Counted from the first letter of the stretch, positions 27,154-39,319 are shown. The stretch: 39,319 nt of DNA from an uncultured Actinomycetes bacterium (GCA_945957335.1 CAMFLJ010000002.1:1-39319), one strand, 5' to 3'. Numbers and translations are program-made. The notes: a model not told the origin generated them from the sequence alone.

Positions 27154-27183
27154 GCGCGCGGTGGCGCGCGTTTGTGCGCGCGG
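27154..27183 (+). promoter_or_regulatory. Three tandem GCGCGCG boxes, possible RHH operator
   Basis: GCGCGCG occurs at 27154-27160, 27164-27170 and 27176-27182, with starts 10 and 12 bases apart; the first and third continue as GCGCGCGGT. Ribbon-helix-helix dimers bind arrays of short repeats about one helical turn apart, and the next gene encodes such a protein. The boxes end 12 bases before the promoter box at 27195. Confidence 0.5.
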
Positions 27184-27194
27184 TATCCACCACG

Positions 27195-27217
27195 CTGTCA
27201 CACCCCCTGGGTACCGT
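27195..27217 (+). promoter_or_regulatory. Damage-type promoter of the methyltransferase operon (leaderless)
   Basis: CTGTCACAC (27195-27203), eight bases, TACCGT (27212-27217), then seven bases to the GTG at 27225. The nine-base box, N8 and TAnnnT layout equals that of the mycobacterial RecA-independent, PafBC-dependent promoter (tTGTCRgtg-N8-TAnnnT), though the last three bases of the box differ. Fifteen bases (27194-27208) are identical to 36118-36132 before sbcD. Confidence 0.55.
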
Positions 27218-27224
27218 CGCCGAC

Positions 27225-27407
27225 GTGGCCCGACCCCGCACCTTCGAAGAGCCGCGCGTGCCCACCGCCGTGCGCCTGCCCGAGTCGCTGCACGACCGCC
27301 TCCACCGCGAGGCCTCGGCGCGCGACGTCTCGGCCAACCTGCTCGTCACCAAGGCGCTCGAGGCCTACCTCGAGAAGCTCCCTCCCGTCGAGGAGGTCGC
27401 CCCGTGA
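27225..27407 (+). CDS. Ribbon-helix-helix DNA-binding protein
   Basis: 60 residues from the GTG at 27225, supported by the promoter seven bases upstream. After MARPRTFEEPRV comes PTAVRLPESLHDRLHREASA then RDVSANLLVTKALEAYLEKL: one strand and two helices, the ribbon-helix-helix (CopG/Arc) fold of plasmid repressors and antitoxins. The next gene overlaps it by four bases (GTGA) and is a DNA methyltransferase, so it probably works as the operon's own repressor, like the C-protein of some restriction systems but of a different fold. The tandem GCGCGCG boxes are its likely operator. An antitoxin role is possible but no toxin is seen. Confidence 0.8.
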   Translation: MARPRTFEEPRVPTAVRLPESLHDRLHREASARDVSANLLVTKALEAYLEKLPPVEEVAP

Positions 27408-28897
27408 CCGAGCCCAAGAAGCGCACGCGGACCGTCACCTCCAACTTCGGGTCGTCGCGGCGGGAGAGCCACGACGCCACCGCCTTCTACGACCGCTTCG
27501 TGGCCCCCGAGGTCTCCTCCGACGACACCGTCGAGCTCAACGACCCCGGCGTGGTCGACACCATCCACCTCGGCGACATCTCCGAGGTGCAGAACCTCAA
27601 GCCCAACTCGGTGGCCCTCGTGGTCACCTCGCCGCCCTACTTCGCGGGCAAGGCCTACGAGGAGAGCCTCGGCGAGAACGGCGTGCCGGCCGACTACTTC
27701 GAGTACCTCGCCATGCTCGAACGGGTCTTCGCCGAGTGCGAGCGCGTGCTCGAGCCGGGCGGGCGCATCGCGGTCAACGTCGCCAACCTCGGCCGTCGCC
27801 CCTACCGGTCGCTGGCCGGCGACGTCACCCAGATCCTCCAGGACCTCGGCCTGCTGTTGCGGGGCGAGGTCGTGTGGTGGAAGGGCCGGGCCGCCGGCGG
27901 CTCGTGCGCATGGGGCACGTTCCAGCGCCCCTCCAACCCGGTGCTGCGCGACGTCACCGAGCGGGTGGTCATCGCCAGCAAGGGCCGCTTCGAGCGGGCG
28001 CTCACGCCGGCCCAGCGCGAGAAGCGCGGCCTGCCCCACGAGTCGACCATCTCCAAGGACGAGTTCCTCGAGGCCACCACCGACCTCTGGGAGATGCCGC
28101 CCGAGAGCGCCACCCGGGTCAACCACCCGGCGCCGTTCCCGGTCGAGCTGCCCGAGCGGCTGATCCACCTCTACACCTACAAGGGCGACCTCGTGCTCGA
28201 CCCGTTCATGGGCTCGGGCAGCACCGCGGTGGCCGCCGTGCGCACCGACCGCCACCACGTGGGCTACGACCTCGACCCCGAGTACGTCGCCCGGGCCGAG
28301 GCCCGCATCGCGGCCGAGGTCGAGCGCCTCGGCGCCATCGACGTCGACCAGCTCTCGCTGTTCAAGGTCACCCTCCCGGCGGTGAAGGTGAAGGACCAGC
28401 CCGAGCCCGAGCCCGGCGACTACCAGTCGCGGGCCGTGCGCGAGGGCCGCCAGGCCAAGGAGATCGCCGAGGCCCTGCTCAAGGACTGCGGCTTCGACAT
28501 CAAGGGCCACGACGTGGGCATGCCCGGCGGCGTCGAGGTCAACATCGTGGCCGCCGACGCCAACGGCACCGACTGGGCCTTCGACGTGTCGGGCGCCTTC
28601 ACCTCCAACCGGGCCGGGCTCAAGCGCACCGACACCCTCTGGAAGGCGCTGGGCAAGGCGTCGGTGCTCTCGCTCGACCCCACCTTCGACATGCCCGTGG
28701 TGCTGCTCACCACCGACAAGCCGGCCAAGGGCAGCGCGGGGGCCAAGGCCCTGGCCGCCTCCACCGGATGGCACCCCGGCCGCGAGCGCCGCCGGCCGGT
28801 GGCCGCGGTGGTCGAGATGCTCGACGCGCAGGGCCGGGCCGAGCTCACGCGCTACGCCGCCGAGGGCCGCATCGCCCTGCCGCACCTCCCCGACTGA
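27404..28897 (+). CDS. DNA methyltransferase (beta-type, TSPPY) with extra C-terminal domain
   Basis: 497 residues from a GTG overlapping the previous stop. Motif IV TSPPYF (about residue 70) precedes motif I DPFMGSGSTAVAA (about 266-278), the beta order of N4-cytosine and N6-adenine DNA methyltransferases. Between them are GGRIAVNVANLG and a region with WWKGRAAGGSCAWGTFQRPS that could read the target. Residues 340-497 form an additional domain, EVNIVAADANGTDWAFDVSG then AFTSNRAGLKRTDTLWKALG. Its strand-turn-strand layout recalls PD-(D/E)xK nucleases, but the lysine is missing (DVSG), so I suspect a non-catalytic or recognition domain. It is followed after six bases by a nuclease-like gene. 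Confidence 0.85.
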   Translation: MTEPKKRTRTVTSNFGSSRRESHDATAFYDRFVAPEVSSDDTVELNDPGVVDTIHLGDISEVQNLKPNSVALVVTSPPYFAGKAYEESLGENGVPADYFEYLAMLERVFAECERVLEPGGRIAVNVANLGRRPYRSLAGDVTQILQDLGLLLRGEVVWWKGRAAGGSCAWGTFQRPSNPVLRDVTERVVIASKGRFERALTPAQREKRGLPHESTISKDEFLEATTDLWEMPPESATRVNHPAPFPVELPERLIHLYTYKGDLVLDPFMGSGSTAVAAVRTDRHHVGYDLDPEYVARAEARIAAEVERLGAIDVDQLSLFKVTLPAVKVKDQPEPEPGDYQSRAVREGRQAKEIAEALLKDCGFDIKGHDVGMPGGVEVNIVAADANGTDWAFDVSGAFTSNRAGLKRTDTLWKALGKASVLSLDPTFDMPVVLLTTDKPAKGSAGAKALAASTGWHPGRERRRPVAAVVEMLDAQGRAELTRYAAEGRIALPHLPD

Positions 28898-28903
28898 CCG
28901 GCC

Positions 28904-29998
28904 GTGTCGGCCGACCGCACCTTCGTCACCGAGCTGGCCACCGGCCTCGGCATGCTCCTGCCCCCCGAGGGCGAGGTGGCGGAGCTCGGCGCGCTCATCG
29001 ACGCCCGCCCCCCGCAGCTCGCCAACCTCGGACCCGACGGGTGGCAGCGCCTCGCCGAGCTGTGGGCCGGTGGGGCCTTCGCCGACGACTTCGCCCACGG
29101 CGCGGCCAACGGCCGGGCCTTCGCCGCCGCTCCCGACGCCCTCAACGGCCGGCCACCGCGCATCGTCGAGTGGACCGGCCCCCGCCGGGCTCCCGGCGAC
29201 GAGGTCGTGCCTGCCGACCTGCGCGTCGACCACGTCTACCTCGTGAGCTGCAAGTACCTGTCGAAGGTGCTGCACAACGCCTCGCCTCCCCGGCTGGTCG
29301 ACGGGCTGCTGGCCCAGGGCCCGGTCGAGGAGCGCGGCGACTGGTACGCCGCGGTCGCACCCGCCGAGCACGCCGAGCTCTACGCCGCGTGCACCGACGC
29401 CCTCGGCGGCGGCTGGCCGGCGCGGGCCGACGAGCTCGACACCGAGCAGCGCCGCGCCCTCGCCACAGCCCTGCGCGGCGCCTGGCCCGACGACGCGGTC
29501 GAGCCCTACGGCCGTCTGTGCGCGGCCGTGGCCTCGGCCACCGTCGCCCGCTGGTCGGCCCGCATCGACGCGCGCTCCCGCGAGGCGCTGCTCTGGCGGC
29601 TGCTGCGCATCGGCTCGGCCCCCTACTTCGTGCTCGGCAGCAGCGCCTCGGGGCCGATGCGGCTCCGCATCGACACGCCGTGGGACTGGCGCCAGCGGTT
29701 CGCCCTGCGGGGCTTCGAGGTCGAGGCCCAGCCCGGCGGCCAGCCGCGCGTGGCCTGGCGGGGCCACTACCGGGTGCTCGCCACCGGCGACGACCGCACG
29801 GTCGAGGGCCACGTCGAGCTGCGCTGGAGCCACGGCCGCTTCAGCGGGCCGCCCGAGGCCAAGGTCTACCTCGACACCCCTCACGACCAGGTGCCCGGCT
29901 ACCACCCGCTCGACGGCGGGCCCGTGGCCCCGGCCGATCCACCGCCGCCGGCCGATGGCGACGTCGACGGCGACCTCGACCTGACCCTGTTCGGCTGA
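28904..29998 (+). CDS. Restriction endonuclease-like protein partnered with the methyltransferase
   Basis: 364 residues from a GTG six bases after the methyltransferase stop. The most telling part is PADLRVDHVYLVSCKYLSKV then LHNASPPRLVDGLL (about residues 105-137). An acidic residue at the edge of a strand followed about 12 residues later by a strand ending in xCK and then a conserved N-SP helix resembles PD-(D/E)xK restriction enzymes, with Ser in the usual acid position. The C-terminal half has FVLGSSASGPMRLRIDTPWD and RWSHGRFSGPPEAKVYLDTP, beta-rich and possibly DNA binding. I do not recognise a named family. Context (RHH regulator, methyltransferase) argues for the nuclease of a restriction-modification system. 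Confidence 0.6.
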   Translation: MSADRTFVTELATGLGMLLPPEGEVAELGALIDARPPQLANLGPDGWQRLAELWAGGAFADDFAHGAANGRAFAAAPDALNGRPPRIVEWTGPRRAPGDEVVPADLRVDHVYLVSCKYLSKVLHNASPPRLVDGLLAQGPVEERGDWYAAVAPAEHAELYAACTDALGGGWPARADELDTEQRRALATALRGAWPDDAVEPYGRLCAAVASATVARWSARIDARSREALLWRLLRIGSAPYFVLGSSASGPMRLRIDTPWDWRQRFALRGFEVEAQPGGQPRVAWRGHYRVLATGDDRTVEGHVELRWSHGRFSGPPEAKVYLDTPHDQVPGYHPLDGGPVAPADPPPPADGDVDGDLDLTLFG

Positions 29999-29999
29999 G

Positions 30000-30015
30000 C
30001 CGCCTCCGGAGGCGG
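30000..30015. terminator. Bidirectional terminator palindrome
   Basis: CCGCCTCCGGAGGCGG is a perfect 16-base inverted repeat in the 19-base gap between the nuclease-like gene (ends 29998) and the convergent DedA gene (ends 30018). Confidence 0.55.
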
Positions 30016-30017
30016 GG

Positions 30018-30647
30018 TCAGGCCTCGTCGTCGGCGAGGGCGAGGCGCCTGTTGCGGCGCCGGGCCTTCACCACGAGGTACCCGAAGCCGAGCACCAGGG
30101 CCGCGATCACCACGTTGTTGATCACGCCGTGCCACTCGTCGGCGCGCTCCCACTGGTGGCCGAGCAGCTGGCCCACGACGATCCACACCGCGTTCCAGAG
30201 GAGGCTGCCCAGCGCGGTGAGCAGGGTGAAGCTCCAGAACGGCATGCGCTCGGCACCGGCGGGGATGCTGACCACCGAGCGCACGACCGGCACGAGCCGC
30301 CCGAACAGCACGACCTTGGCGCCGTGGCGGTCGAACCACGCGAAGCCGGTGGCGACGTCGTCGGCGGTCAGGCCGATCCACCGCCCGACCCGGGCCAGGA
30401 ACCGCTCGAGGCGCTCGCCGCGGATCCACGCGCCGAGCCCGTAGAGCGCCCACGCGCCCACGACCGAGCCGACGGTGGCGAGCAGGATCGCCGGCACCAC
30501 GCCGAAGCGCCCGGTGTCGACGTTGAACCCGGTGAGCAGCAGCACCAGCTCCGAGGGGATGGGCGGGAAGATGCTCTCCAGCGCCACCAGCAGCGCCACC
30601 CCCGGCAGCCCGATGGCGTCGATCACCTGCGTCGCCCAGTCGATCAC
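30018..30647 (-). CDS. DedA family membrane protein
   Basis: 209 residues from the GTG at 30647, which has TAGGAT eight bases before it. It shows the DedA pattern: ALLVALESIFPPIPSELVLL, a re-entrant and membrane region ILLATVGSVVGAWALYGLGA, then VVLFGRLVPVVRSVVSIPAG then AERMPFWSFTLLTALGSLLW, where the R-x2-P-x2-R-x6-AG residues are conserved. DedA proteins act as undecaprenyl-phosphate or phospholipid flippases and in membrane potential homeostasis. The C-terminus is basic (KARRRNRRLALADDEA), facing the cytosol. Monocistronic, convergent with the methyltransferase operon. Confidence 0.9.
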   Translation of the reverse strand: MIDWATQVIDAIGLPGVALLVALESIFPPIPSELVLLLTGFNVDTGRFGVVPAILLATVGSVVGAWALYGLGAWIRGERLERFLARVGRWIGLTADDVATGFAWFDRHGAKVVLFGRLVPVVRSVVSIPAGAERMPFWSFTLLTALGSLLWNAVWIVVGQLLGHQWERADEWHGVINNVVIAALVLGFGYLVVKARRRNRRLALADDEA

Positions 30648-30655
30648 GGGCGCCC

Positions 30656-30661
30656 ATCCTA
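30656..30661 (-). promoter_or_regulatory. -10 element, leaderless DedA promoter
   Basis: TAGGAT on the minus strand is followed by eight bases (GGGCGCCC) and the GTG at 30647. The same hexamer with seven bases precedes the SDR gene at the window start. Confidence 0.5.
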
Positions 30662-30740
30662 CGAACCCCGCTTCGTCCGTTGGGGTCGCCCCCCACCACG
30701 GCGCTGGAACCGGGTTTCGGTGCGCCGTGACGGGCGGCCG

Positions 30741-30746
30741 TACCAT
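30741..30746 (+). promoter_or_regulatory. Possible -10 element of the catabolic gene run
   Basis: TACCAT lies 60 bases before the ATG at 30807. No good -35 is seen at 16-18 bases. The leader has a weak ribosome site (GCGAGGA). Confidence 0.3.
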
Positions 30747-30806
30747 GCGGCGGCCGAGCGGGGCCCCACCCGGCGGCGCGACCAGCACGCAGACAGCGAG
30801 GACACC

Positions 30807-31685
30807 ATGGGCTACCCGGACGGCATCGGCGCCATCGACTTGATGATCGGCTTCCCCTTCACCGACAAGAAGGCGACGTACGACTACCTCCGGGCCGGCA
30901 TCAAGGACACCGGCGAGGACGCCTCGGTGATGCCCGCGGGCTACATGTTCAAGGACACGCCCGACGAGGCCGGCGACCGCGACCCCGTCGAGGTCACCTT
31001 CACCGAGATGGACAAGTACGGCGTGGCCGCCGGGCTGTTCGGCGTCAGCGAGAACTCGATCGAGGCCAAGAAGCGCTACCCGAACCGGGTGTTCTTCAGC
31101 ATCGAGGTCGACCCCAACGACATCACGGGCGCGGTGCGCAAGATCCGCGACACCCACGCCGAGCACGGGCTCAGCGCGGTCACCACGTTCCCGGCCGGCT
31201 GCATCCCGCAGGTCCCGGTGAGCGACCGCCGTTACTACCCGATCTACCAGACGTGCATCGACCTCGACATCCCGATCATCTCCAACGCCGGCATCCCCGG
31301 CCCCCGGGTGCCGGCCGAGTGCCAGAACGTCATGCACTTCGACCAGGTCTGCTACGACTTCCCCGAGCTGCGGATCGTGATGCGCCACGGCGCCGAGCCG
31401 TGGGAGGAGCTGGCCGTCAAGCTCATGCTCAAGTGGCCGGGGCTCTACTACATGCCGTCGGCGTTCGCCCCGAAGTACTACCCGGAGGCGATCATCAAGT
31501 ACGCCAACAGCCGGGGCCGCGAGAAGGTCATGTACGCCGGCTACTACCCGGCCGGGCTCACCCTCGAGCGCATCTTCACCGAGATGCGGAACGTGCCGCT
31601 CAAGGACGAGGTGTGGCCGCTCTTCCTGCGGGAGAACGCCAAGAAGGTCTTCAAGATGGACACCGTCCACGAGCTGGGGTCCTGA
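30807..31685 (+). CDS. Amidohydrolase-2 fold protein with degenerate metal site
   Basis: 292 residues. Overall it follows the amidohydrolase 2 (ACMSD-like) TIM barrel: GAIDLMIGFPFTDK at the first strand, FFSIEVDPNDITGAVRKIRD, YYPIYQTCIDLDIPIISNAG, LRIVMRHGAEPWEELAVKLM and KVMYAGYYPAGLTLERIFTE. The usual metal ligands are mostly replaced: the first-strand HxH is L-M-I-G, the mid His is SNAG, and the final Asp is Tyr (AGYYP); only RHG remains. It may be a non-metal or non-catalytic member. The next gene starts within its stop codon (TGATG), so translation is coupled with an SDR. Confidence 0.75.
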   Translation: MGYPDGIGAIDLMIGFPFTDKKATYDYLRAGIKDTGEDASVMPAGYMFKDTPDEAGDRDPVEVTFTEMDKYGVAAGLFGVSENSIEAKKRYPNRVFFSIEVDPNDITGAVRKIRDTHAEHGLSAVTTFPAGCIPQVPVSDRRYYPIYQTCIDLDIPIISNAGIPGPRVPAECQNVMHFDQVCYDFPELRIVMRHGAEPWEELAVKLMLKWPGLYYMPSAFAPKYYPEAIIKYANSRGREKVMYAGYYPAGLTLERIFTEMRNVPLKDEVWPLFLRENAKKVFKMDTVHELGS

Positions 31686-32404
31686 TGGCCACCGTCGTCA
31701 TCACCGGGGCCGGCCAGGGCCTGGGGCGCGCGGACGCCGTGCGCCTGGCGGCCGACGGCTGGTCGGTCGTGTGCCTCGACCTCAACGGCGACCTCGCGGC
31801 CGAGACCGCCGAGCTGGTCGGCGGCACGTCGTTCGCCGTCGACGTCACCGACCGCGACGCCGTGCTGGCCGTGGCCGACGAGGTGCCCGAGTGCACGGCG
31901 CTGGTCAACAACGCCGGCATCTGGAAGTTCCACTCGATCCTCGACATGACGCCCGAGCAGGCCCGCTCGGTGTTCGAGGTGAACGTGCTCGGCATCATCT
32001 GGTGCACGCAGGCCTTCGTCCCGAAGATGAAGGCGGCCGGCACCGGCTCGATCGTGAACATGTCGTCGGGCGCGGCGTGGACGAGCTCGCCCGGCCTCGG
32101 GCTCTACCCGGCCACCAAGTCGGGCGTCGAGTCGCTCACCAAGACCATGGCGCTCGAGCTCGGCCCCGACAACATCCGGGCCAACGCCATCGGCCCCGGC
32201 CTGATCGTCAGCGACGGCACCGCCGCCAACTACCAGGGCGACGCCGCCGCCAAGCGGGCCAAGGGCGTGCCCATGGCCCGCGTGGGCGACCCCACCGACA
32301 TCGCCGACGTGGTCGCGTTCCTGTGCGGGAACGACTCGCGCTACGTCAGCGGCCAGGTCATCTACGTCGACGGCGCCGTCACCGCAGGCGCCCTCGCCCG
32401 CTGA
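31685..32404 (+). CDS. Short-chain dehydrogenase/reductase
   Basis: 239 residues, start overlapping the previous stop. All SDR hallmarks are present: TGAGQGLG near residues 7-14, a D in CLDLNG at the end of strand 2 pointing to NAD(H) preference, NNAG, NMSSG with the catalytic Ser, and YPATK (YxxxK), then NAIGPGLI and SGQVIYVDGA. It probably oxidises or reduces a hydroxyl/keto group in the pathway shared with the amidohydrolase-like protein and the hotdog dehydratase. Confidence 0.92.
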   Translation: MATVVITGAGQGLGRADAVRLAADGWSVVCLDLNGDLAAETAELVGGTSFAVDVTDRDAVLAVADEVPECTALVNNAGIWKFHSILDMTPEQARSVFEVNVLGIIWCTQAFVPKMKAAGTGSIVNMSSGAAWTSSPGLGLYPATKSGVESLTKTMALELGPDNIRANAIGPGLIVSDGTAANYQGDAAAKRAKGVPMARVGDPTDIADVVAFLCGNDSRYVSGQVIYVDGAVTAGALAR

Positions 32405-32427
32405 GCCACGGTCCCGCCGAGCGCACC

Positions 32428-33429
32428 ATGGCCACCTCCCTCGACGACCTGCTCGCCCGGCGGGTCGACAAGGTGGGGGAGGTGGCCGTCAGCTCGGGTG
32501 ACGTCCTGCGCTGGAGCGAGGCCCACCGGGTGCGCTCGCCTCGGCACTGGCCCGATCGCACGCCCGGCTGGGTGGCGCCGCCGGCGATGGTCACCTCGTT
32601 CGTGCGGCCCCTCGAGTGGCGGCCCGACCGTGACGGCCCGCCGGGCGACCGCGGCTCGACGCTGCACGAGGAGCTGAAGGCGCTCCTCGGCCTGCCGCTG
32701 GGCATCGCCTCCGGCTACGAGCTCGAGCTGCACGCCCTGCTGGGCGACGGCGACGAGCTGGTGGCGGTCGAGCGCATCGCCGAGGTCGGCGAGCCCGAGG
32801 TGTCGCGCCTGGGCCCGGGTCGGCGCTGGGTGATCGAGAACGCCATCTCGCGGGTCGGCGATGGCGCCCTCGTGGCCGTCGAGCGCTTCCACATGCTCGG
32901 CTACGACCCCGCCGCCCCTCGCCGGCCCGAGCCCTCTTCCTCCTCTGGTTCGGTTCGTGAGCCCAGGGGCGACGTGCCGTACCAGAGGGAGGGGAGCGTG
33001 GTCGCGGTGGAGGAGGTGGACGTCAGTGCGGTGGCGATCGTGATGGGCGCGTCGGCCAACCGGGTGTGGACCCCGGCCCACGTCGACGTCGACGCCGCCA
33101 ACGCGGCGGGCATCGCCGACATGTTCCTCGACACCTCCACCCAGCTCGGGCTGCTGTCGGTGGTCGGTGGCCGGGCCGCGCACGACGACGCCCGGCCGGG
33201 CCGGCTCTCGCTGCGGATGCGCCGGCCGGTCCTGCGCGGCGACCACCTGGTGGTCGAGGCCACCGCCGCCCCGGTCGTGGTCGACGACTCGGGCGTGGCG
33301 TGGGTGGAGGTCGACGTGCGGGCGACCGTCGGGGGCGAGGTCCGTAGCTCGGTCACCGGCCGCTACGCCGTGCCGGGCGGCGATGCCACCGACCCGTGGG
33401 CCCTCGGCCCCGACCGCTGGCACCCCTGA
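32428..33429 (+). CDS. Double-hotdog MaoC-like dehydratase carrying an in-frame repeat
   Basis: 333 residues from the ATG at 32428. The N-terminal half (about 15-165) resembles the FAS1/MaoC_N hotdog: VTSFVRPLEWRPD, ELKALLGLPLGIASGYELEL, VERIAEVGEPEVSRLGPGRR. The C-terminal half (about 195-330) resembles a second hotdog: VMGASANRVWTPAHVDVDAA, LLSVVGGRAAHDDARPGRLS, WVEVDVRATVGGEVRSSVTG. Such proteins hydrate enoyl-CoA or bind acyl-CoA. The linker (residues about 172-187, SSGSVREPRGDVPYQR) is encoded by copy B of the 48-base hairpin repeat, which keeps the reading frame. The gene is 23 bases after the SDR. Confidence 0.75.
   Translation: MATSLDDLLARRVDKVGEVAVSSGDVLRWSEAHRVRSPRHWPDRTPGWVAPPAMVTSFVRPLEWRPDRDGPPGDRGSTLHEELKALLGLPLGIASGYELELHALLGDGDELVAVERIAEVGEPEVSRLGPGRRWVIENAISRVGDGALVAVERFHMLGYDPAAPRRPEPSSSSGSVREPRGDVPYQREGSVVAVEEVDVSAVAIVMGASANRVWTPAHVDVDAANAAGIADMFLDTSTQLGLLSVVGGRAAHDDARPGRLSLRMRRPVLRGDHLVVEATAAPVVVDDSGVAWVEVDVRATVGGEVRSSVTGRYAVPGGDATDPWALGPDRWHP
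32942..32989. repeat. 48-bp hairpin repeat, copy B (inside a coding sequence)
   Basis: It matches copy A (27097-27144) at 45 of 48 positions. Differences: element position 16 (A in copy A, G here) swaps A-T for G-T in the CATG/CGTG stem, position 25 is in the two-base loop (AT to AG), and position 37 (T to C) turns a G-T into a G-C pair. All preserve the fold. It is 48 bases long, a multiple of three, and lies in the linker between two hotdog domains. Confidence 0.85.
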
Positions 33430-33449
33430 ACGACCGGCGCGGGCTGGCC

Positions 33450-33455
33450 TAGGTT
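33450..33455 (+). promoter_or_regulatory. -10 element, leaderless epoxide hydrolase promoter
   Basis: TAGGTT is followed by eight bases (CTCGGGCC) and the ATG at 33464. No Shine-Dalgarno sequence is seen. Confidence 0.5.
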
Positions 33456-33463
33456 CTCGGGCC

Positions 33464-34642
33464 ATGCCCGACGCCACGCCGCAGCCCTTCACGATCCACG
33501 TCCCCGACGAGGTGCTCGACGACCTCGACCGCCGGCTGGCGAGCGTGCGCTGGCCCGACCAGGCGCCGGGCGAGGCGTGGACCTTCGGGATCCCCGTCGA
33601 GGTGATGCGGCAGGTCGTGTCGTACTGGCGCGACGGCTACGACTGGCGGGCCCGCGAGGCCGCCATGAACGCATGGCCCAACTTCGTCACCACCGCGGCG
33701 GGCGAGCAGGTCCACTTCCTCCACGTCCGCTCGCCCGAGCCCGACGCCACCCCGCTGGTGCTCACCCACGGCTGGCCCGGCTCGTTCGTCGAGTTCCTCG
33801 ACGTGCTCGGCCCCCTCTCCGACCCGGTGGCCCACGGCGGCGACGCGGCCGACGCCTTCCACGTGGTCGTGCCGTCGATGCCGGGCTACGGGTTCTCGGG
33901 CCCCACCGTGACCGAGGGCGTCGACTCCAAGCGGGTCGCCGACGCGGTGGCCGAGCTGATGGCCCAGCTGGGCTACGACCGCTACGTCGCCCAGGGCGGC
34001 GACTGGGGCGCCATCGTCACCCGCCACCTCGGCGAGAGCTACGCCGACCGCCTGCTCGGCGTGCACTTCAACATGCTCTTCGCCTTCCCCGCGGCCGACG
34101 ACCCCGACCCGATGGGCGGCGTCACCGACGCCGAGCTGGCCCGCTTCGGCGCCGCGGCCGAGCGCATCTCCGACGGCACCGGCTACATGGCCATCCAGAG
34201 CACCAAGCCCCAGACGCTGTCGTACGGGCTCACCGACTCGCCCACCGCGCTGGCGGCGTGGATCCTCGAGAAGTTCCAGGTCTGGAGCGACCTCGACGAG
34301 GGCGGGCTCGAGGCCACCTACGGGTGGGACCGCCTCCTCGACAACGTGATGGCCTACTGGGTGACCGGCACCGCCGGCTCGGCGGCGCGGCTCTACGCCG
34401 AGTCGCGCCGGGCCGGCACGGCGGCCGACCAGCCGTGGGCGGGTCGGGTCGACGTGCCCACCGGCTACTCCCACCAGCCCTACGAGCTGATGCAGACCCC
34501 CCGGGCCTGGGCCGACAAGAAGTACCGCATCGTCCACTGGAACGAGCAGGAGCGCGGTGGGCACTTCGCCTGCATGGAGCGGCCCGAGCAGTTCGTGGCC
34601 GACCTGCGCGAGTTCAACCGCGTGCTGGCCGCCCTCGACTGA
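33464..34642 (+). CDS. Epoxide hydrolase (alpha/beta-hydrolase with EHN domain)
   Basis: 392 residues, normal for microsomal-type bacterial epoxide hydrolases. The N-terminal EHN lid (FTIHVPDEVLDDLDRRLASV, RWPDQAPGEAWTFGIPVEVM, YDWRAREAAMNAWPNF) is followed by the hydrolase core with oxyanion motif HGWPGS, nucleophile GGDWG (Asp180) and catalytic GGHFACMERPE (His367). It opens epoxides to diols and is cytosolic. It has its own promoter but stands 34 bases after the hotdog gene, so it may belong to the same pathway. Confidence 0.92.
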   Translation: MPDATPQPFTIHVPDEVLDDLDRRLASVRWPDQAPGEAWTFGIPVEVMRQVVSYWRDGYDWRAREAAMNAWPNFVTTAAGEQVHFLHVRSPEPDATPLVLTHGWPGSFVEFLDVLGPLSDPVAHGGDAADAFHVVVPSMPGYGFSGPTVTEGVDSKRVADAVAELMAQLGYDRYVAQGGDWGAIVTRHLGESYADRLLGVHFNMLFAFPAADDPDPMGGVTDAELARFGAAAERISDGTGYMAIQSTKPQTLSYGLTDSPTALAAWILEKFQVWSDLDEGGLEATYGWDRLLDNVMAYWVTGTAGSAARLYAESRRAGTAADQPWAGRVDVPTGYSHQPYELMQTPRAWADKKYRIVHWNEQERGGHFACMERPEQFVADLREFNRVLAALD

Positions 34643-34654
34643 AGCGAGCGCGGA

Positions 34655-35065
34655 TCAGCCGGCGGCGGCCGAGCGCTGCGCGGCGAGCGGGTTGTAGTAC
34701 TCGCGCTGGCGGCAGATCAGCCCGTCGCGGAACCCGTAGACGATGACGTAGCGGTTCTCGTAGGGCGCCCCGTTGGGCGTGTAGGTGCCGGTGGCGGCGG
34801 CCTCGACGATCAGCTCGTCGGGGTCGACGGTGTCGTGCACCTCGACCACCCGCAGGTCGAGCTCGAACAGCCCGAGCGCGGTGGTGAGGTAGGGCTGCAC
34901 GACGTCCTTGCCCTCGAGCCGCTTGGGCGGGTCGGCAAACGGGAACTCGAGCACGAGGTCGTCGGTGTAGTGGGCCATCTGCCCGGCGGCGTCGCCGGCG
35001 TTGATGGCGCGCACCGCGCCCTCGACCGCGGCCTTGTTGCGGGCCCTCGTCTGGTCGTCCCCCAC
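34655..35065 (-). CDS. SnoaL/NTF2-like protein (limonene-epoxide-hydrolase-like fold)
   Basis: 136 residues from a GTG with AGGGGGAG upstream. AAVEGAVRAINAGDAAGQMA then HYTDDLVLEFPFADPPKRLE, GKDVVQPYL and YVIVYGFRDGLICRQREYYN are the SnoaL-like pattern with central DDLVLEFPF and a terminal EYYNP strand. Many members are ketosteroid-isomerase-like enzymes. The gene is convergent with the epoxide hydrolase (12-base gap). Confidence 0.82.
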   Translation of the reverse strand: MGDDQTRARNKAAVEGAVRAINAGDAAGQMAHYTDDLVLEFPFADPPKRLEGKDVVQPYLTTALGLFELDLRVVEVHDTVDPDELIVEAAATGTYTPNGAPYENRYVIVYGFRDGLICRQREYYNPLAAQRSAAAG

Positions 35066-35114
35066 GGCTCCCCCTGCAACTCGTCGGCGGGCACGGGGCC
35101 CGCCGGTCTCCCGG

Positions 35115-35453
35115 TCAGCCGCGGCCGCGGCCGCCCTTGCCCCGCTCGGGCACCAGGGCCACGAGGCGGGCGCCGACGGTCGAGATGACCTCGTCGGAGG
35201 GGGTCACGTCGTCCTCGACCAGCTCCAGCAGCGCCTCGTGCTCCTCGGCGGTGAGGGCGAGGAGGCGGCCCTGGTAGCGGGCGGCGCTGGTGCGGGTGAA
35301 CACGCGGGGCGAGCGGAGCTTGGAGGCCACGGCGTCGAGGACCTCCTCGTCGGCGTCGCCCGGCGTGTCGTTGACGAGGTCGAGGAGCTCCCAGATCTGG
35401 CGCGGCGTGAGCACCACGCCGAGCAGGTCGGTTTCGGACGTCGTCGTCGTCAT
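35115..35453 (-). CDS. Uncharacterised small protein, 112 residues
   Basis: A soluble, mostly helical acidic protein, with GGAG before the ATG at 35453. It reads LTPRQIWELLDLVNDTPGDA then DEEVLDAVASKLRSPRVFTR and YQGRLLALTAEEHEALLELV. I do not recognise a family. The C-terminus is short and basic (RGKGGRGRG), as in some nucleic-acid-associated proteins. The 141-base gap upstream holds no feature I can support. Confidence 0.6.
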   Translation of the reverse strand: MTTTTSETDLLGVVLTPRQIWELLDLVNDTPGDADEEVLDAVASKLRSPRVFTRTSAARYQGRLLALTAEEHEALLELVEDDVTPSDEVISTVGARLVALVPERGKGGRGRG

Positions 35454-35594
35454 CGCGGGTGTCTCCGGGGGATGTGCGTGCGTGATCTCTGCGTTCAGGA
35501 CGCCCGGGCGCTGCGGTTCATTCCCGTCGCCCGCCGCCCGGCGTCGACACCCCCGTTCCTAGTGCCATCGCACCGGCGCGTGCACGTCGGCGGC

Positions 35595-36056
35595 TCACGA
35601 GGCTCCGGACGGCCCCATCGCCCGGTCGACGAACTGGCGGGCACCGGTGTCGAGGACCCAGTCGTGGCCCCGCCGGACGAGGGGCTGGGCCAGCAGGGCG
35701 AAGGCCTGGAGCGCCGCGTTGCCGGGGGCGAGGTCGGACACGAGGTGGACGCGGGAGCCGGTGCCGGCGTCGGTGAGCTCGAGGCGGGCGTCGCCCACGA
35801 CGTCGCCGTCGACGGCGGCCTCCACCGCGTTGGGCGCGTCGACCAGGGTGAGGTCGAGGGTGAAGCGCACCCGGTAGGGGAGCGGCGGCGCGACCGTGCA
35901 GGCCCACCGCCGGCCCTGGGCCAGCTCGTCGCCGTCGAAGGCGACGAGCCACGGCCACCACTCCCGGAACCGGCCGGGCCGGGCGAAGGCGTCCCAGACG
36001 TCGTCGCGGCGGGCGGGGACGTCGTACCAGCGGTCGGATCGCACGCGCACGGCCAC
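35595..36056 (-). CDS. SRPBCC (START/polyketide cyclase-like) protein
   Basis: 153 residues from a GTG following a purine-rich ribosome site (GGGGGAAGGGA). VRSDRWYDVPARRDDVWDAF then ARPGRFREWWPWLVAFDG is the typical start of the helix-grip fold, and the C-terminal helix LLAQPLVRRGHDWVLDTGAR then QFVDRA closes the cavity. Members bind hydrophobic ligands or act as cyclases. Ligand unknown. Confidence 0.82.
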   Translation of the reverse strand: MAVRVRSDRWYDVPARRDDVWDAFARPGRFREWWPWLVAFDGDELAQGRRWACTVAPPLPYRVRFTLDLTLVDAPNAVEAAVDGDVVGDARLELTDAGTGSRVHLVSDLAPGNAALQAFALLAQPLVRRGHDWVLDTGARQFVDRAMGPSGAS

Positions 36057-36118
36057 TCCCTTCCCCCTCCGGCGGCCCCCGTGCCCTGGTCGGGCCCGGG
36101 TTTCCCCTGGTCAGAAGG

Positions 36119-36141
36119 CTGTCACACCCCCTCCGTAGGGT
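36119..36141 (+). promoter_or_regulatory. Damage-type promoter upstream of sbcDC
   Basis: CTGTCACAC (36119-36127), eight bases, TAGGGT (36136-36141). It has the same box, spacing and flanks as the promoter at 27195. The start codon of sbcD is 41 bases beyond. Confidence 0.55.
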
Positions 36142-36166
36142 CACCGGTGAGCCTTCCTCACAGACC

Positions 36167-36172
36167 TACGAT
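36167..36172 (+). promoter_or_regulatory. Second -10 element of sbcD
   Basis: TACGAT lies ten bases before the ATG at 36183 and would give an almost leaderless mRNA. With the promoter at 36119 it may provide basal expression. Confidence 0.4.
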
Positions 36173-36182
36173 CGGACGGGCG

Positions 36183-37493
36183 ATGCGGATCCTCCACACG
36201 AGCGACTGGCACCTCGGGCGCAGCTTCGGCCCCGTGTCGCTCCACGCCGACCAACAGGCCTTTCTCGACTGGCTCGTCGAGCTGGTCGTGGCCGAGCGCG
36301 TCGACCTTGTGGTGGTGGCGGGCGACCTCTACGACCGGGCCATCCCGCCGACGGAGTCCGTGGCGCTCCTGCGCGACACCCTCGAGCGCCTGGTGGCCCA
36401 CCGGGTCAGGGTCGTCGCCATCGCCGGCAACCACGACGGGCCCGACCGCCTCGCCGCCTACGACGGGCTCACCGACCTCGCGGGCGTGGTGGTGCGCGGC
36501 GGGTTCGGCCGGGCCGGCGCCCTCACCACCCTCGAGCTCGACGACGGGCCGCTCGACGTCGTGGCCGTCCCCTACCTCGACCCGGTCCTCGTGCCGCCGG
36601 CGTGGGCCGAGCAGGCCGCGGAGGCGGCATCCGCCGAGGTCGCGGCGCCGCCCGTCGCGCCCTCCCCGGTCGAGCCGGCGGACGACCGCGAGCCCACCAA
36701 CCTCTTCGACTTCCTCGAGGCCTCCACCGCCCCCGAGCCCGAGGCGGCCAACCTGCCCGCCGCGGGCGCCGCCCCGCTGCGCACCCACCACGCCGTCCTG
36801 GCCGAGGCGCTGCGCCGGACCGCGGCCGAGCAGCGCTCGCCCCGTCGCCTGGCGGTGGCCCACGCCTTCGTCTCCGGGGCGCTGCCCTCCGACTCCGAGC
36901 GGCTGCTCACCGTGGGCGGCACGGCCGAGGTCGGCGTCGAGCTGTTCGACGGGTTCCACTACGTCGCCCTCGGCCACCTCCACCGGCCCCAGCGGGTCAC
37001 CGCAGGCGTCGACCACGTGCGCTACTCCGGCACCCCGCTGCCCTACTCGTTCTCCGAGACCCACCCCAAGCAGGTCGTCCTCGTCGACATGGCCCCCGAC
37101 GGCGCCACCGAGGTGCGCACCGTCGAGGTGCCGGTGGGCCGCGGCGTCGCCACCGTCACCGGCACCCTCGCCGAGCTGCTCGACGACCCCACCCACCACG
37201 AGGCCACCGACCGCTTCGTGCGGGCCGTGCTCACCGACCCCGGCTACGTCGTCGACGCCAAGAGCCGTCTGCAGGCCCGCTTCCCGCACGTCGTCGAGGT
37301 CGTCCTCGCCCCGGTCCGGCCCGACACCGTCGCACCCCAGGGCGCCGCTGCCGGCGCGGTGCGCCGCATGGCACCGCTCGAGGCTGCCGTCGGGTTCTGG
37401 CTCGACGTCACCGGCGACGAGCCCACCGAGGTCGAGCGCTCGCTGCTCGAGTCCGCACTCGCCCACGTGGCCAGCGCCGAGGCCCGGGCATGA
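36183..37493 (+). CDS. sbcD: Exonuclease SbcD (Mre11-type nuclease subunit)
   Basis: 436 residues. The metallophosphoesterase motifs are complete: ILHTSDWHLG (4-13), DLVVVAGDLYDRA, AIAGNHDGPDRL, a VAHAFVSG site and ALGHLHRPQ. The C-terminal cap runs to the end. With SbcC it cleaves hairpins and processes DNA ends. A low-complexity Pro/Ala/Glu-rich insertion (about residues 140-200, including EPTNLFDFLEAS) sits before the third motif and lengthens the protein relative to typical actinomycete SbcD. It overlaps sbcC by four bases (ATGA). Confidence 0.95.
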   Translation: MRILHTSDWHLGRSFGPVSLHADQQAFLDWLVELVVAERVDLVVVAGDLYDRAIPPTESVALLRDTLERLVAHRVRVVAIAGNHDGPDRLAAYDGLTDLAGVVVRGGFGRAGALTTLELDDGPLDVVAVPYLDPVLVPPAWAEQAAEAASAEVAAPPVAPSPVEPADDREPTNLFDFLEASTAPEPEAANLPAAGAAPLRTHHAVLAEALRRTAAEQRSPRRLAVAHAFVSGALPSDSERLLTVGGTAEVGVELFDGFHYVALGHLHRPQRVTAGVDHVRYSGTPLPYSFSETHPKQVVLVDMAPDGATEVRTVEVPVGRGVATVTGTLAELLDDPTHHEATDRFVRAVLTDPGYVVDAKSRLQARFPHVVEVVLAPVRPDTVAPQGAAAGAVRRMAPLEAAVGFWLDVTGDEPTEVERSLLESALAHVASAEARA

Positions 37494-39272
37494 GGCCCCA
37501 CGAGCTGCGCCTCACGGCGTTCGGCAGCTACCCCGGCACCGAGCACGTCGACTTCGACGCCCTCGCCCGGCTCGGGCTGTTCACCGTCACCGGCCCCACT
37601 GGCGCGGGCAAGACCACCCTGTTCGACGCCATGGCCTTCGCCCTCTACGGCGGGGTCCCGGGCGACCGGCCCACCGCCGAGGTGCGCTCGCACCACGCCG
37701 GCCCGGCCGAGCGCTGCTCGGTCGAGCTCACCTTCTCGGTCGAGGGCACCACCTACCGCGTGGCGCGCACCCCCGAGCAGGAGCGGCCCAAGCGGCGCGG
37801 CGCCGGCACCGTCGTCGAGCCCGCCACCGCTGAGCTCCACCGCCTCGACCCCGACGGCCGGGTCACCCCGGTCGCGTCCGGCACCCGGCAGGTCACCGAT
37901 GCCTGCACCGCGCTGGTGGGCCTCGACGCCGGCCAGTTCGAGCGCGTCGTGCTGCTGCCCCAGGGCAAGTTCCAGCAGTTCCTGCTGGCCGGCACCAAGG
38001 AGCGCCGGCCGCTCCTCCAGAAGCTGTTCGGCACCGCGCTCTACCGCGACGCCGTCGAGGAGCTCAAGCGCCGGGCGGCCGACCTGCGCCGCCGGGTCGA
38101 GCAGGTCGACACCGAGATCGACCACCACCGCCTCAACGCCAAGGACCACCTCCGCGCGGTGGCCGCCGGCCTCGCCGACGCCGAGCTCGACGGGGTCGAG
38201 CCCGACGACGACATCGAGCTGCTCGAGGGCTTCTGGCAGAAGCTGGCGCCCGGCGTGGCCGAGGCCGAGCGCGACGCCGCGGCCCTCACCGTCCGTGCCG
38301 CGGAGGCCACCCGCGCCGCCGAGGCGGCCCGTTCCGTCGCCGAGCAGTGGGCCCGTCGGGCCCAGCTCGTCGCCCGGTCCGAGGTGCTGGCCAAGGCCGG
38401 CCCCGATGTCCAGGCGGCCCGTGAGCGGGTCGCCGCCGCCCGACGGGCCGCGCCCGTGGTGGCCGCCGCCGAGGTCCTGGCCCTCACCCGCCAGGGCCTC
38501 ACCACCGCCGAGCAGGCCGTCACCCGGGCCACCTCCGCCCTGGCCGACCAGCTCGTCGGGCTGGGCCTGGCCGAGCCGGGCGAGCCCGTCGACCCGGCCG
38601 GCGCCGACACCGCCTTCGGGCAGGCCACGGCCGAGCTGGTGCGGTCGGTCGAGCAGGTCAAGGCGCTGGCCGCGGCGGTCACCGAGCACCAGGCCGCGGT
38701 GTCGGTCGTCGAGCGCCTGCGGGCCGACACCACCCGCCATGCCCAGGCGCTCGAGGCCGTCGAGCGCGAGCGGGGCTCGCTCGCCGCCCGCCGCACCGCC
38801 CTCGAGCCCCTCGCCGCCGGCGCCGCGGTGCTGGCCGAGCGGGTCGAGGCGTCGGCCACCCGGGTCGAGCAGCGGCGCACCCTCGAGCGGGCCCGCCAGG
38901 TGCTCTCCCGCCAGGAGGCCGCCCGCCTCGAGGCCGAGTCGGCCCTGGCCCACGTCCTGGCCGACTTCGTCGCCGGCGCCGCCCCGCGCCTCGCCGCCAC
39001 GTTGCGTGCAGGCGAGAGCTGCCCGGTGTGCGGCAGCGTCGAGCACCCCGAGCCCGCCGGCGCCGACCTCGACGGCACCGTCGACGTCGCCGTGCTCGAG
39101 CGGGCCCAGCGGGCCACGGCCAAGGCCGCCTCCGACCTCGCCGACACCACCTCGGCCGTCCGCACCCTGGCCGAGGGCCTCGGGGCCGACGCCGACCGCC
39201 CCCTCGACGAGCTGCTCGACGCCCACCGGGCCCTGCTGGCCGAGGCCACCGCCGCCGAGGGCGCGGCCACCG
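37490..39272 (+). CDS. sbcC: Exonuclease SbcC (Rad50-type ATPase), 3' part missing
   Basis: About 594 residues are present; the real protein is probably around 1000. Walker A GPTGAGKTT at 35-43 and the Q-loop region (QGKFQQFLLAGTKERRPLLQ) are clear. A long alanine/arginine/glutamate-rich coiled coil follows, with the zinc hook CPVC at 511-514, where two molecules join. The second coiled coil, signature and Walker B motifs lie beyond the contig. The frame continues to the window end, but the codons after 39272 come from an adapter and must not be taken as protein. Confidence 0.93.
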
Positions 39273-39319
39273 CTGTCTCTTATACACATCTCCGAGCCCA
39301 CGAGACTAAGGCGAATCTC
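39273..39319. other. Illumina Nextera adapter left on the contig end
   Basis: CTGTCTCTTATACACATCT (39273-39291) is the Tn5 mosaic end, followed by CCGAGCCCACGAGAC, the eight-base index TAAGGCGA and ATCTC, the exact order of a Nextera i7 read-through. It is not genomic DNA. Confidence 0.98.

What the first reader, a model, noticed from the sequence alone, without database searches (positions are those of the whole stretch)
27195..36141. Identical damage-type promoter box before the methyltransferase operon and before sbcDC
Fifteen bases (27194-27208 and 36118-36132) are identical, and in both the box CTGTCACAC is followed by exactly eight bases and TAnnGT. Known: PafBC-dependent, RecA-independent DNA damage promoters in mycobacteria have tTGTCRgtg-N8-TAnnnT. 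SbcCD is a repair nuclease, so the site is in a sensible place. The inference that the methyltransferase/nuclease operon is DNA-damage induced would be unusual, linking a restriction-like system to the repair response. The box differs from the mycobacterial one in its last three bases (CAC for GTG).
Basis: partly seen in the sequence, partly recalled or inferred. Interest (0 to 1): 0.78.

Follow-up and report, generated by a model that had tools for sequence, protein, structure and literature searches.

The report
Damage-type promoter drives methyltransferase–nuclease operon
In a little-studied group of bacteria, a DNA-marking enzyme, with a probable DNA-cutting partner, sits behind the same promoter signal that precedes the cell's DNA-repair genes, so it is probably made when DNA is damaged; this links a restriction-like system to the repair response and can be tested directly.

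Summary
TGTCACAC-N8-TAnnnT occurs 13 times in this genome against 0 for the reversed control; the looser TGTCR-N11-TAnnnT 34 times against 3. It precedes recA, recC, uvrB, uvrC, ligA, radA, dnaB, dciA, sbcD, a RecQ-like helicase, comF and DUF222/13E12-like genes. The genome carries pafA-pafB-pafC, and PafB matches M. smegmatis PafB (E 1.7e-33). Named relatives point to Acidimicrobiia; the box there reads TGTCRCAC/G instead of mycobacterial TGTCRgtg.

The methyltransferase operon is a recurrent regulon member. Of 103 non-redundant homologous loci, 32 have the box at exactly this spacing; 14 other spacings total 3, the reverse strand 2. The operon encodes an RHH protein, an N4/N6 DNA methyltransferase ending in a degenerate PD-(D/E)xK domain, and a 364-aa protein whose model resembles restriction enzyme HinP1I (Z 7.7). 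A second element, CGCGCGTTTnTGCGCGCGgTATCCrCC, lies just upstream and co-occurs with the RHH gene (11/13 vs 0/109): probably that protein's operator.

Inferred, not shown: PafBC binding, induction by damage, and the purpose (probably protecting newly made DNA from the operon's own nuclease).

The parts
27165..27192 (+). Candidate operator of the operon's own RHH protein: CGCGCGTTTGTGCGCGCGGTATCCACCA, containing a palindrome at 27165-27182; ends 3 nt before TGTC of the damage box
   Evidence: Seen at the same place upstream of other RHH-bearing methyltransferase loci; co-occurs with the RHH gene 11/13 vs 0/109, Fisher p 5.6e-14; single site in the genome
27195..27203 (+). Damage-type (-26) box CTGTCACAC before the methyltransferase operon
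   Evidence: Sequence; 13 exact genome copies vs 0 in the control
27212..27217 (+). -10 element TACCGT, eight bases after the box
27225..27407 (+). RHH/HicB-like small protein (60 aa), GTG start 7 nt after the -10, so a leaderless transcript is likely
   Evidence: Pfam HicB E 8.3e-6; spacing
27404..28897 (+). DNA methyltransferase, beta class (TSPPY before DPFMGSG), 497 aa
   Evidence: Pfam N6_N4_Mtase E 1.2e-36; PADLOC MTase_II E 8e-85; PDB 2zie E 6.9e-38; present in 329 of 395 class genomes
28418..28894 (+). C-terminal domain of the methyltransferase: PD-(D/E)xK fold with degenerate active site (VEVN ... FDVSG where the stand-alone relatives have VEID ... FEYKGS)
   Evidence: Alignment A2; AlphaFold model of the stand-alone relative, pLDDT 93.6; matches XisH Z 10.1, BsoBI 9.6, PspGI 8.8, EndoMS 8.1
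28904..29998 (+). P3, 364 aa, probable PD-(D/E)xK type II restriction endonuclease; start 6 nt after the methyltransferase stop
   Evidence: No Pfam, NCBIfam or PADLOC match; invariant P103, D105, K117; model pLDDT 91; best structural match HinP1I Z 7.7 and 6.6, next row 3.5
36119..36127 (+). Damage-type (-26) box CTGTCACAC before sbcDC
   Evidence: sbcD of relatives: box in 7/30 at spacing 11, none at other spacings
36136..36141 (+). -10 element TAGGGT
36147..37493 (+). sbcD (GTG 5 nt after the -10, or in-frame ATG at 36183)
   Evidence: TIGR00619 E 3.6e-48
37490..39319 (+). sbcC, cut off by the contig end
   Evidence: TIGR00618 E 9.8e-47

Best explanation
Both boxes are PafBC-type (RecA-NDp-like) DNA-damage promoters, in a form particular to this class (most likely Acidimicrobiia): TGTCRCAC/G-N8-TAnnnT, usually followed 5-8 nt later by the start codon. 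By analogy with mycobacteria, ssDNA made by damage binds the WYL domains of PafBC, and PafBC then lets RNA polymerase with the housekeeping sigma factor start at the box (sigma adaptation). One such promoter drives sbcDC. Another drives an operon of an RHH protein, a DNA methyltransferase with a degenerate PD-(D/E)xK tail, and a probable restriction endonuclease. The second promoter also carries the probable operator of the RHH protein just upstream, so the operon would have two inputs: its own RHH regulator and the damage response. The most likely purpose is self-protection. Repair and restart synthesis make unmethylated or hemimethylated DNA, and a burst of methyltransferase keeps the operon's own nuclease from cutting it, which would be a transcriptional form of restriction alleviation. 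Shown here: box architecture, regulon, regulator gene, recurrence at the methyltransferase operon, predicted domain folds and the RHH element. Inferred: PafBC binding, induction, nuclease activity and purpose. The confidence given is for the promoter and regulon part; for the self-protection purpose alone it is about 0.35.
For: Genome-wide enrichment 13 vs 0 and 34 vs 3. Downstream genes are dominated by repair and replication. pafA-pafB-pafC present; PafB matches M. smegmatis PafB 7p5x E 1.7e-33, with EAFxRxFERDKxELRxLGIP shared. recA: box in 17/30 at spacing 11 and 0 at 14 other spacings, plus a LexA-type box in 30/30, the dual control described for mycobacterial recA (PMC8223512). sbcD: 7/30 at spacing 11, 0 at others. 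Methyltransferase: 32/103 at spacing 11, 3 in total over 14 other spacings, 2 on the reverse strand, in 13 families. The box label clusters on the methyltransferase tree (20 changes; 200 shuffles gave 24-34) and was gained or lost repeatedly. RHH element: 11/13 vs 0/109. Folds. Box more often present where P3 is adjacent: 19/40 vs 14/79, Fisher p 0.001.
Against: No transcript or binding data were found for any member of the class. About two thirds of the methyltransferase loci lack a strict box. The published weak 'gtg' after TGTCR is not matched. The association of box with P3 is not significant once relatedness is allowed for (pairs 3.8 to 0.4, median p 0.25). P3's nuclease nature rests on a predicted model, and Foldseek itself found no match at E below 0.05. 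Tiny genomes (family code f34) with no clear PafB still show a few strict matches (27 vs 4 control), so absence of the regulator is not a clean negative control.
Confidence: 0.78

Rival explanations
1. The box is a real damage or replication-stress promoter element, but the activator is not PafBC; it could be the third WYL protein of this genome (contig C290) or an alternative sigma factor.
For: A third WYL protein exists. The bases after TGTCR differ from the mycobacterial consensus. Small genomes with no clear PafB still carry a few strict matches.
Against: Core, spacing and -10 are those of the PafBC promoter; PafB's recognition-helix region is close to the mycobacterial one; pafBC lies behind pafA as in mycobacteria; PafB is found in 101 of 119 class genomes.
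Confidence: 0.15
2. The promoter reading is right, but the methyltransferase serves repair or genome marking (for instance strand discrimination) rather than self-protection from its own restriction enzyme.
For: The methyltransferase is in 329 of 395 genomes but P3 in only 39 of 247, so most copies have no P3. Boxes also occur at loci without P3 (14 of 33). Its tail has the fold of nucleases that include the mismatch enzyme EndoMS.
Against: The box is commoner where P3 is adjacent. Another nuclease, a stand-alone PD-(D/E)xK protein, stands next to some copies without P3.
Confidence: 0.3
3. The operon is mainly self-regulated by its RHH protein and the damage box is a minor or decaying input.
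For: The RHH element is kept in loci where TGTC has changed, such as L059 TGGGACAC and L025 CGTGGCAC.
Against: Loci without any RHH gene keep the box directly before the methyltransferase. In the nearest relative the box core, the -10 and the RHH element are kept while the flanks diverge.
Confidence: 0.2
4. The match between the two sites is chance in GC-rich DNA.
For: 15-base repeats are common in this window.
Against: Exact-spacing enrichment genome-wide and class-wide.
Confidence: 0.01

Closest known systems
PafBC-dependent RecA-NDp promoters of mycobacteria and other Actinobacteria
   Same: TGTCR core, N11 spacing to TAnnnT, recA under both this box and LexA, uvr/rec genes in the regulon, pafBC behind pafA
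   Different: Bases after TGTCR are CAC or CAG, not gtg; many starts are leaderless; the regulon here includes sbcD, ligA, radA, dnaB, dciA, comF and a DNA methyltransferase operon
Type II restriction-modification systems
   Same: N6/N4 DNA methyltransferase next to a protein with a HinP1I-like predicted fold, and a small DNA-binding autoregulator with its own probable operator, as C-proteins have
   Different: Methyltransferase present in most genomes of the class rather than patchy; it carries a degenerate nuclease domain; the regulator is RHH-type; expression probably tied to the damage response
WYL regulators of defence systems (BrxR family, PMC9122601, PMC9122589)
   Same: A WYL protein linked to expression of a defence-like operon with a methyltransferase
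   Different: Here the probable regulator is the global activator PafBC, not a locus-encoded one
DNA-damage control of immune operons by CapK/CapS (PMC13373217, abstract only)
   Same: Defence-like operon expressed on DNA damage
   Different: No kinase gene in the operon; an activator promoter is inferred instead of a phosphorylated repressor

Membership tests
PafBC (RecA-NDp) promoter | TGTCR core exactly 11 nt before TAnnnT | tested here: met
   Both sites; genome 34 vs 3 control
PafBC (RecA-NDp) promoter | Found before recA and excision-repair genes of the same genome | tested here: met
   recA, uvrB, uvrC, recC, ligA, radA; recA in 17/30 relatives
PafBC (RecA-NDp) promoter | PafB and PafC encoded, next to pafA | tested here: met
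   CAC or CAG here and across the class; hence filed as a variant of the promoter, not as the mycobacterial motif itself
PafBC (RecA-NDp) promoter | RecA-independent induction by damage through PafBC | not testable with these tools
   Needs transcription or binding data
Type II restriction-modification system | DNA methyltransferase with catalytic motifs | tested here: met
   N6_N4_Mtase E 1.2e-36; MTase_II E 8e-85
Type II restriction-modification system | Cognate restriction endonuclease | tested here: inconclusive
   P3: no sequence family; invariant P-x-D...K; model like HinP1I Z 7.7 with next row at 3.5, but no Foldseek hit
Type II restriction-modification system | Both enzymes share one recognition sequence | not testable with these tools
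   No methylome or cleavage data
PD-(D/E)xK fold (methyltransferase C-terminal domain) | Core fold | tested here: met
   Top rows are mostly known PD-(D/E)xK nucleases, Z about 8-10, for the stand-alone relative aligned in A2
PD-(D/E)xK fold (methyltransferase C-terminal domain) | D...ExK active site in this window's copy | tested here: not met
   VEVN...FDVSG instead of VEID...FEYKGS; likely not catalytic

The most novel reading that the evidence does not exclude
Across the class, a near-universal DNA methyltransferase with a dead nuclease tail is a working part of the PafBC damage response: its mark is laid on repair tracts and is used in repair, with the restriction enzyme a later and optional addition.
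Probability: 0.2. Interest if true: 0.85.

Novelty: new variant of a known kind. Interest (0 to 1): 0.64.

Why it matters
It extends the PafBC damage response to what appears to be Acidimicrobiia, with a changed motif and a readable regulon; no held paper mentions both. It also places a DNA methyltransferase/restriction-like operon in that regulon repeatedly across many families. Restriction systems endanger their host during repair because new DNA is unmethylated; a promoter that raises the methyltransferase exactly then would be a simple answer, and it can be tested with one reporter and one deletion. The RHH protein with a strictly co-occurring candidate operator offers a second regulator to test.

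Tried and rejected
Chance repeat: rejected. LexA control of the operon: the window has no GAAC-N4-GTTC, and only 4 of 103 relatives have one upstream. Leaderless start as independent evidence: dropped, because in this genome many TAnnnT sites without the box also precede a start codon (17 of 33; 8 of 22 in the window, two of them the boxes). PafB-less genomes as a negative control: not clean. The loose pattern in AT-richer relatives: no enrichment over control in many of them, so gene-anchored tests at fixed spacing were used instead. P3 by Foldseek alone: nothing; HinP1I appeared only in the second-look alignment. P3 in plasmids and phages: none. Box-P3 link after correction for relatedness: same direction, not significant. 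Mycobacterial PafBC papers searched for a DNA methyltransferase in the regulon: none in the passages found. The cryo-EM paper on sigma adaptation was not held, so base contacts of PafB could not be compared.

Full report
Check of the observation. The bare 15-base identity means little here, because the window has 64 direct 15-mer repeat pairs. The pairing with the -10 does mean something. TGTCAC occurs 7 times and TAnnnT 22 times on both strands of the window, so about 0.002 pairs are expected at one spacing and two are present. In the whole genome (3.70 Mb, 444 contigs) TGTCACAC-N8-TAnnnT occurs 13 times against 0 for the reversed pattern, and TGTCR-N11-TAnnnT 34 times against 3.

What the boxes stand before. 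Reading downstream and scanning Pfam gives recA, recC, uvrB, uvrC, ligA, radA, dnaB, dciA, a RecQ-like DEAD/DEAH helicase, a DnaQ-like exonuclease, an AlkB-like dioxygenase, sbcD (window), comF, a ComM/YifB homologue, a DNA methyltransferase operon (window) and several DUF222/13E12-like genes. recA, uvrB, uvrC, ligA, dnaB, dciA and recC rest on Pfam matches; radA, comF, RecQ-like and AlkB-like rest on Pfam domains plus reading of the sequence. A few others look unrelated to repair (a pyridoxamine oxidase-like protein, an ANTAR response regulator), so not every site need be functional.

The regulator. A WYL search finds two adjacent WYL proteins behind the C-terminal part of pafA, the pafA-pafB-pafC arrangement of mycobacteria (pafA was recognised by eye from its sequence). 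PafB matches the M. smegmatis protein in 7p5x at E 1.7e-33, including EAFxRxFERDKxELRxLGIP in the helix-turn-helix region. In mycobacteria PafBC binds ssDNA through its WYL domains and lets RNAP-sigmaA use promoters with a -26 element (PMC11804915). PafB is found in 101 of 119 class genomes.

The box in relatives. Named relatives of the methyltransferase include several Acidimicrobiia or Acidimicrobiaceae MAGs and otherwise unplaced Actinomycetota, so the class is most likely Acidimicrobiia. Upstream of recA, 17 of 30 genomes have TGTCR-N11-TAnnnT, none has it at any of 14 other spacings, and all 30 have GAAC-N4-GTTC, a LexA-type box. This repeats the dual control of mycobacterial recA (PMC8223512). 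Upstream of sbcD the box is in 7 of 30, again only at this spacing. The base counts show TGTC, then R, C, A, C or G in place of the mycobacterial gtg.

The methyltransferase operon belongs to the regulon. Of 103 non-redundant full-type loci, 32 have the box within 400 bp upstream at spacing 11; the 14 other spacings together give 3 and the reverse strand 2. Box-bearing loci fall in 13 families (handles). On a tree of the methyltransferases the box changes state 20 times, against 24-34 in 200 shuffles, so it is inherited but also repeatedly gained or lost. In the nearest relative (L022/L058, 74% identical methyltransferase) the box core and -10 are kept while the flanks diverge.

What the operon encodes. 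An RHH/HicB-like protein starts 7 nt after the -10. The methyltransferase is beta class, TSPPY before DPFMGSG, which suggests N4-cytosine but does not prove it (own knowledge). It is in 329 of 395 class genomes, far from the patchy spread usual for restriction systems. Its C-terminal domain aligns with small stand-alone proteins found next to the methyltransferase in some genomes (L062, L068, L069, L079). The stand-alone form keeps VEID...FEYKGS and its model has a PD-(D/E)xK fold (pLDDT 93.6; XisH Z 10.1, BsoBI 9.6, PspGI 8.8, EndoMS 8.1). The fused form has VEVN...FDVSG and is probably not catalytic. The third gene, P3, has no known family. Its model (pLDDT 91) has HinP1I as best structural match, Z 7.7 and 6.6 for two crystal forms with the next row at 3.5, and P103, D105 and K117 are invariant in 38 relatives. 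P3 is in 39 of 247 genomes, and where coordinates can be compared it usually lies beside the methyltransferase. A restriction endonuclease is the best reading but is not proven.

A second element. Upstream of the box lies CGCGCGTTTGTGCGCGCGGTATCCACCA (27165-27192). A version of it stands at the same place in 11 of 13 loci that carry the RHH gene and in none of 109 that do not; L058 has it with one more base change. The exact core occurs once in this genome. It is probably the operator of the RHH protein. In several RHH loci the element is kept while TGTC has changed (L059, L025), so the two inputs can vary independently.

How it most likely works. Damage yields ssDNA, PafBC is activated, and RNAP-sigmaA starts at the box, giving a leaderless transcript of RHH, methyltransferase and P3. 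The RHH protein adds feedback. Raising the methyltransferase when repair synthesis makes unmethylated DNA would protect the host from P3. In favour, the box is commoner where P3 is adjacent (19 of 40 against 14 of 79, p 0.001); against, this is not significant once relatedness is allowed for, and most methyltransferases have no P3 beside them. A repair role of the methyltransferase itself is therefore a serious rival.

Known and new. PafBC promoters, their regulon and their spread in Actinobacteria are known (PMC5656591, PMC6789036, PMC8223512; a RecA-NDp promoter is also described in Streptomyces, PMC5087735). WYL regulators of defence operons are known (PMC9122601, PMC9122589). In the held papers nothing joins PafBC with Acidimicrobiia. 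The variant box, this regulon and the recurrent methyltransferase operon within it appear to be new; this rests on an open-access library only.

Noticed in passing
window 27165-27192; L022, L023, L024, L025, L027, L028, L059, L060, L219, L228, L245: Conserved element CGCGCGTTTnTGCGCGCGgTATCCrCC just upstream of the box, strictly co-occurring with the RHH gene (11/13 vs 0/109).
   Followed up: yes
L004, L005, L007, L008, L009, L011, L012: Seven near-identical boxes precede genes starting 6-7 nt after the -10; most encode a paralogous family resembling DUF222/13E12-like proteins, but only L008 reaches a Pfam match and L007 is cut by the contig end.
   Followed up: partly
L062:704-1138, L068:289-699, L069:3304-3720, L079:674-1090: Stand-alone PD-(D/E)xK proteins with an intact VEID...FEYK site next to the methyltransferase, homologous to its degenerate C-terminal domain. 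L217 has a related copy with an in-frame stop.
   Followed up: partly
window about 39270-39319: Translations at the contig end (SEMCIRDS, GLGDVYKRQ) resemble known adaptor-artefact peptides of assemblies (own knowledge), so the last bases of sbcC are probably not genomic. L011 ends similarly (LSLIHI).
   Followed up: no
L117-L146: Every recA locus examined has GAAC-N4-GTTC upstream, so the LexA pathway is probably also present in this class.
   Followed up: partly
genomes of family code f34: Tiny genomes with no clear PafB still show more strict box matches than the reversed control (27 vs 4 in 26 genomes).
   Followed up: no
L048:1501-1522: A box stands before a frame whose translation looks like a tRNA gene (AIAQLVERFHGMEEVKGSIPFSST), so some matches may be ordinary promoters.
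   Followed up: no
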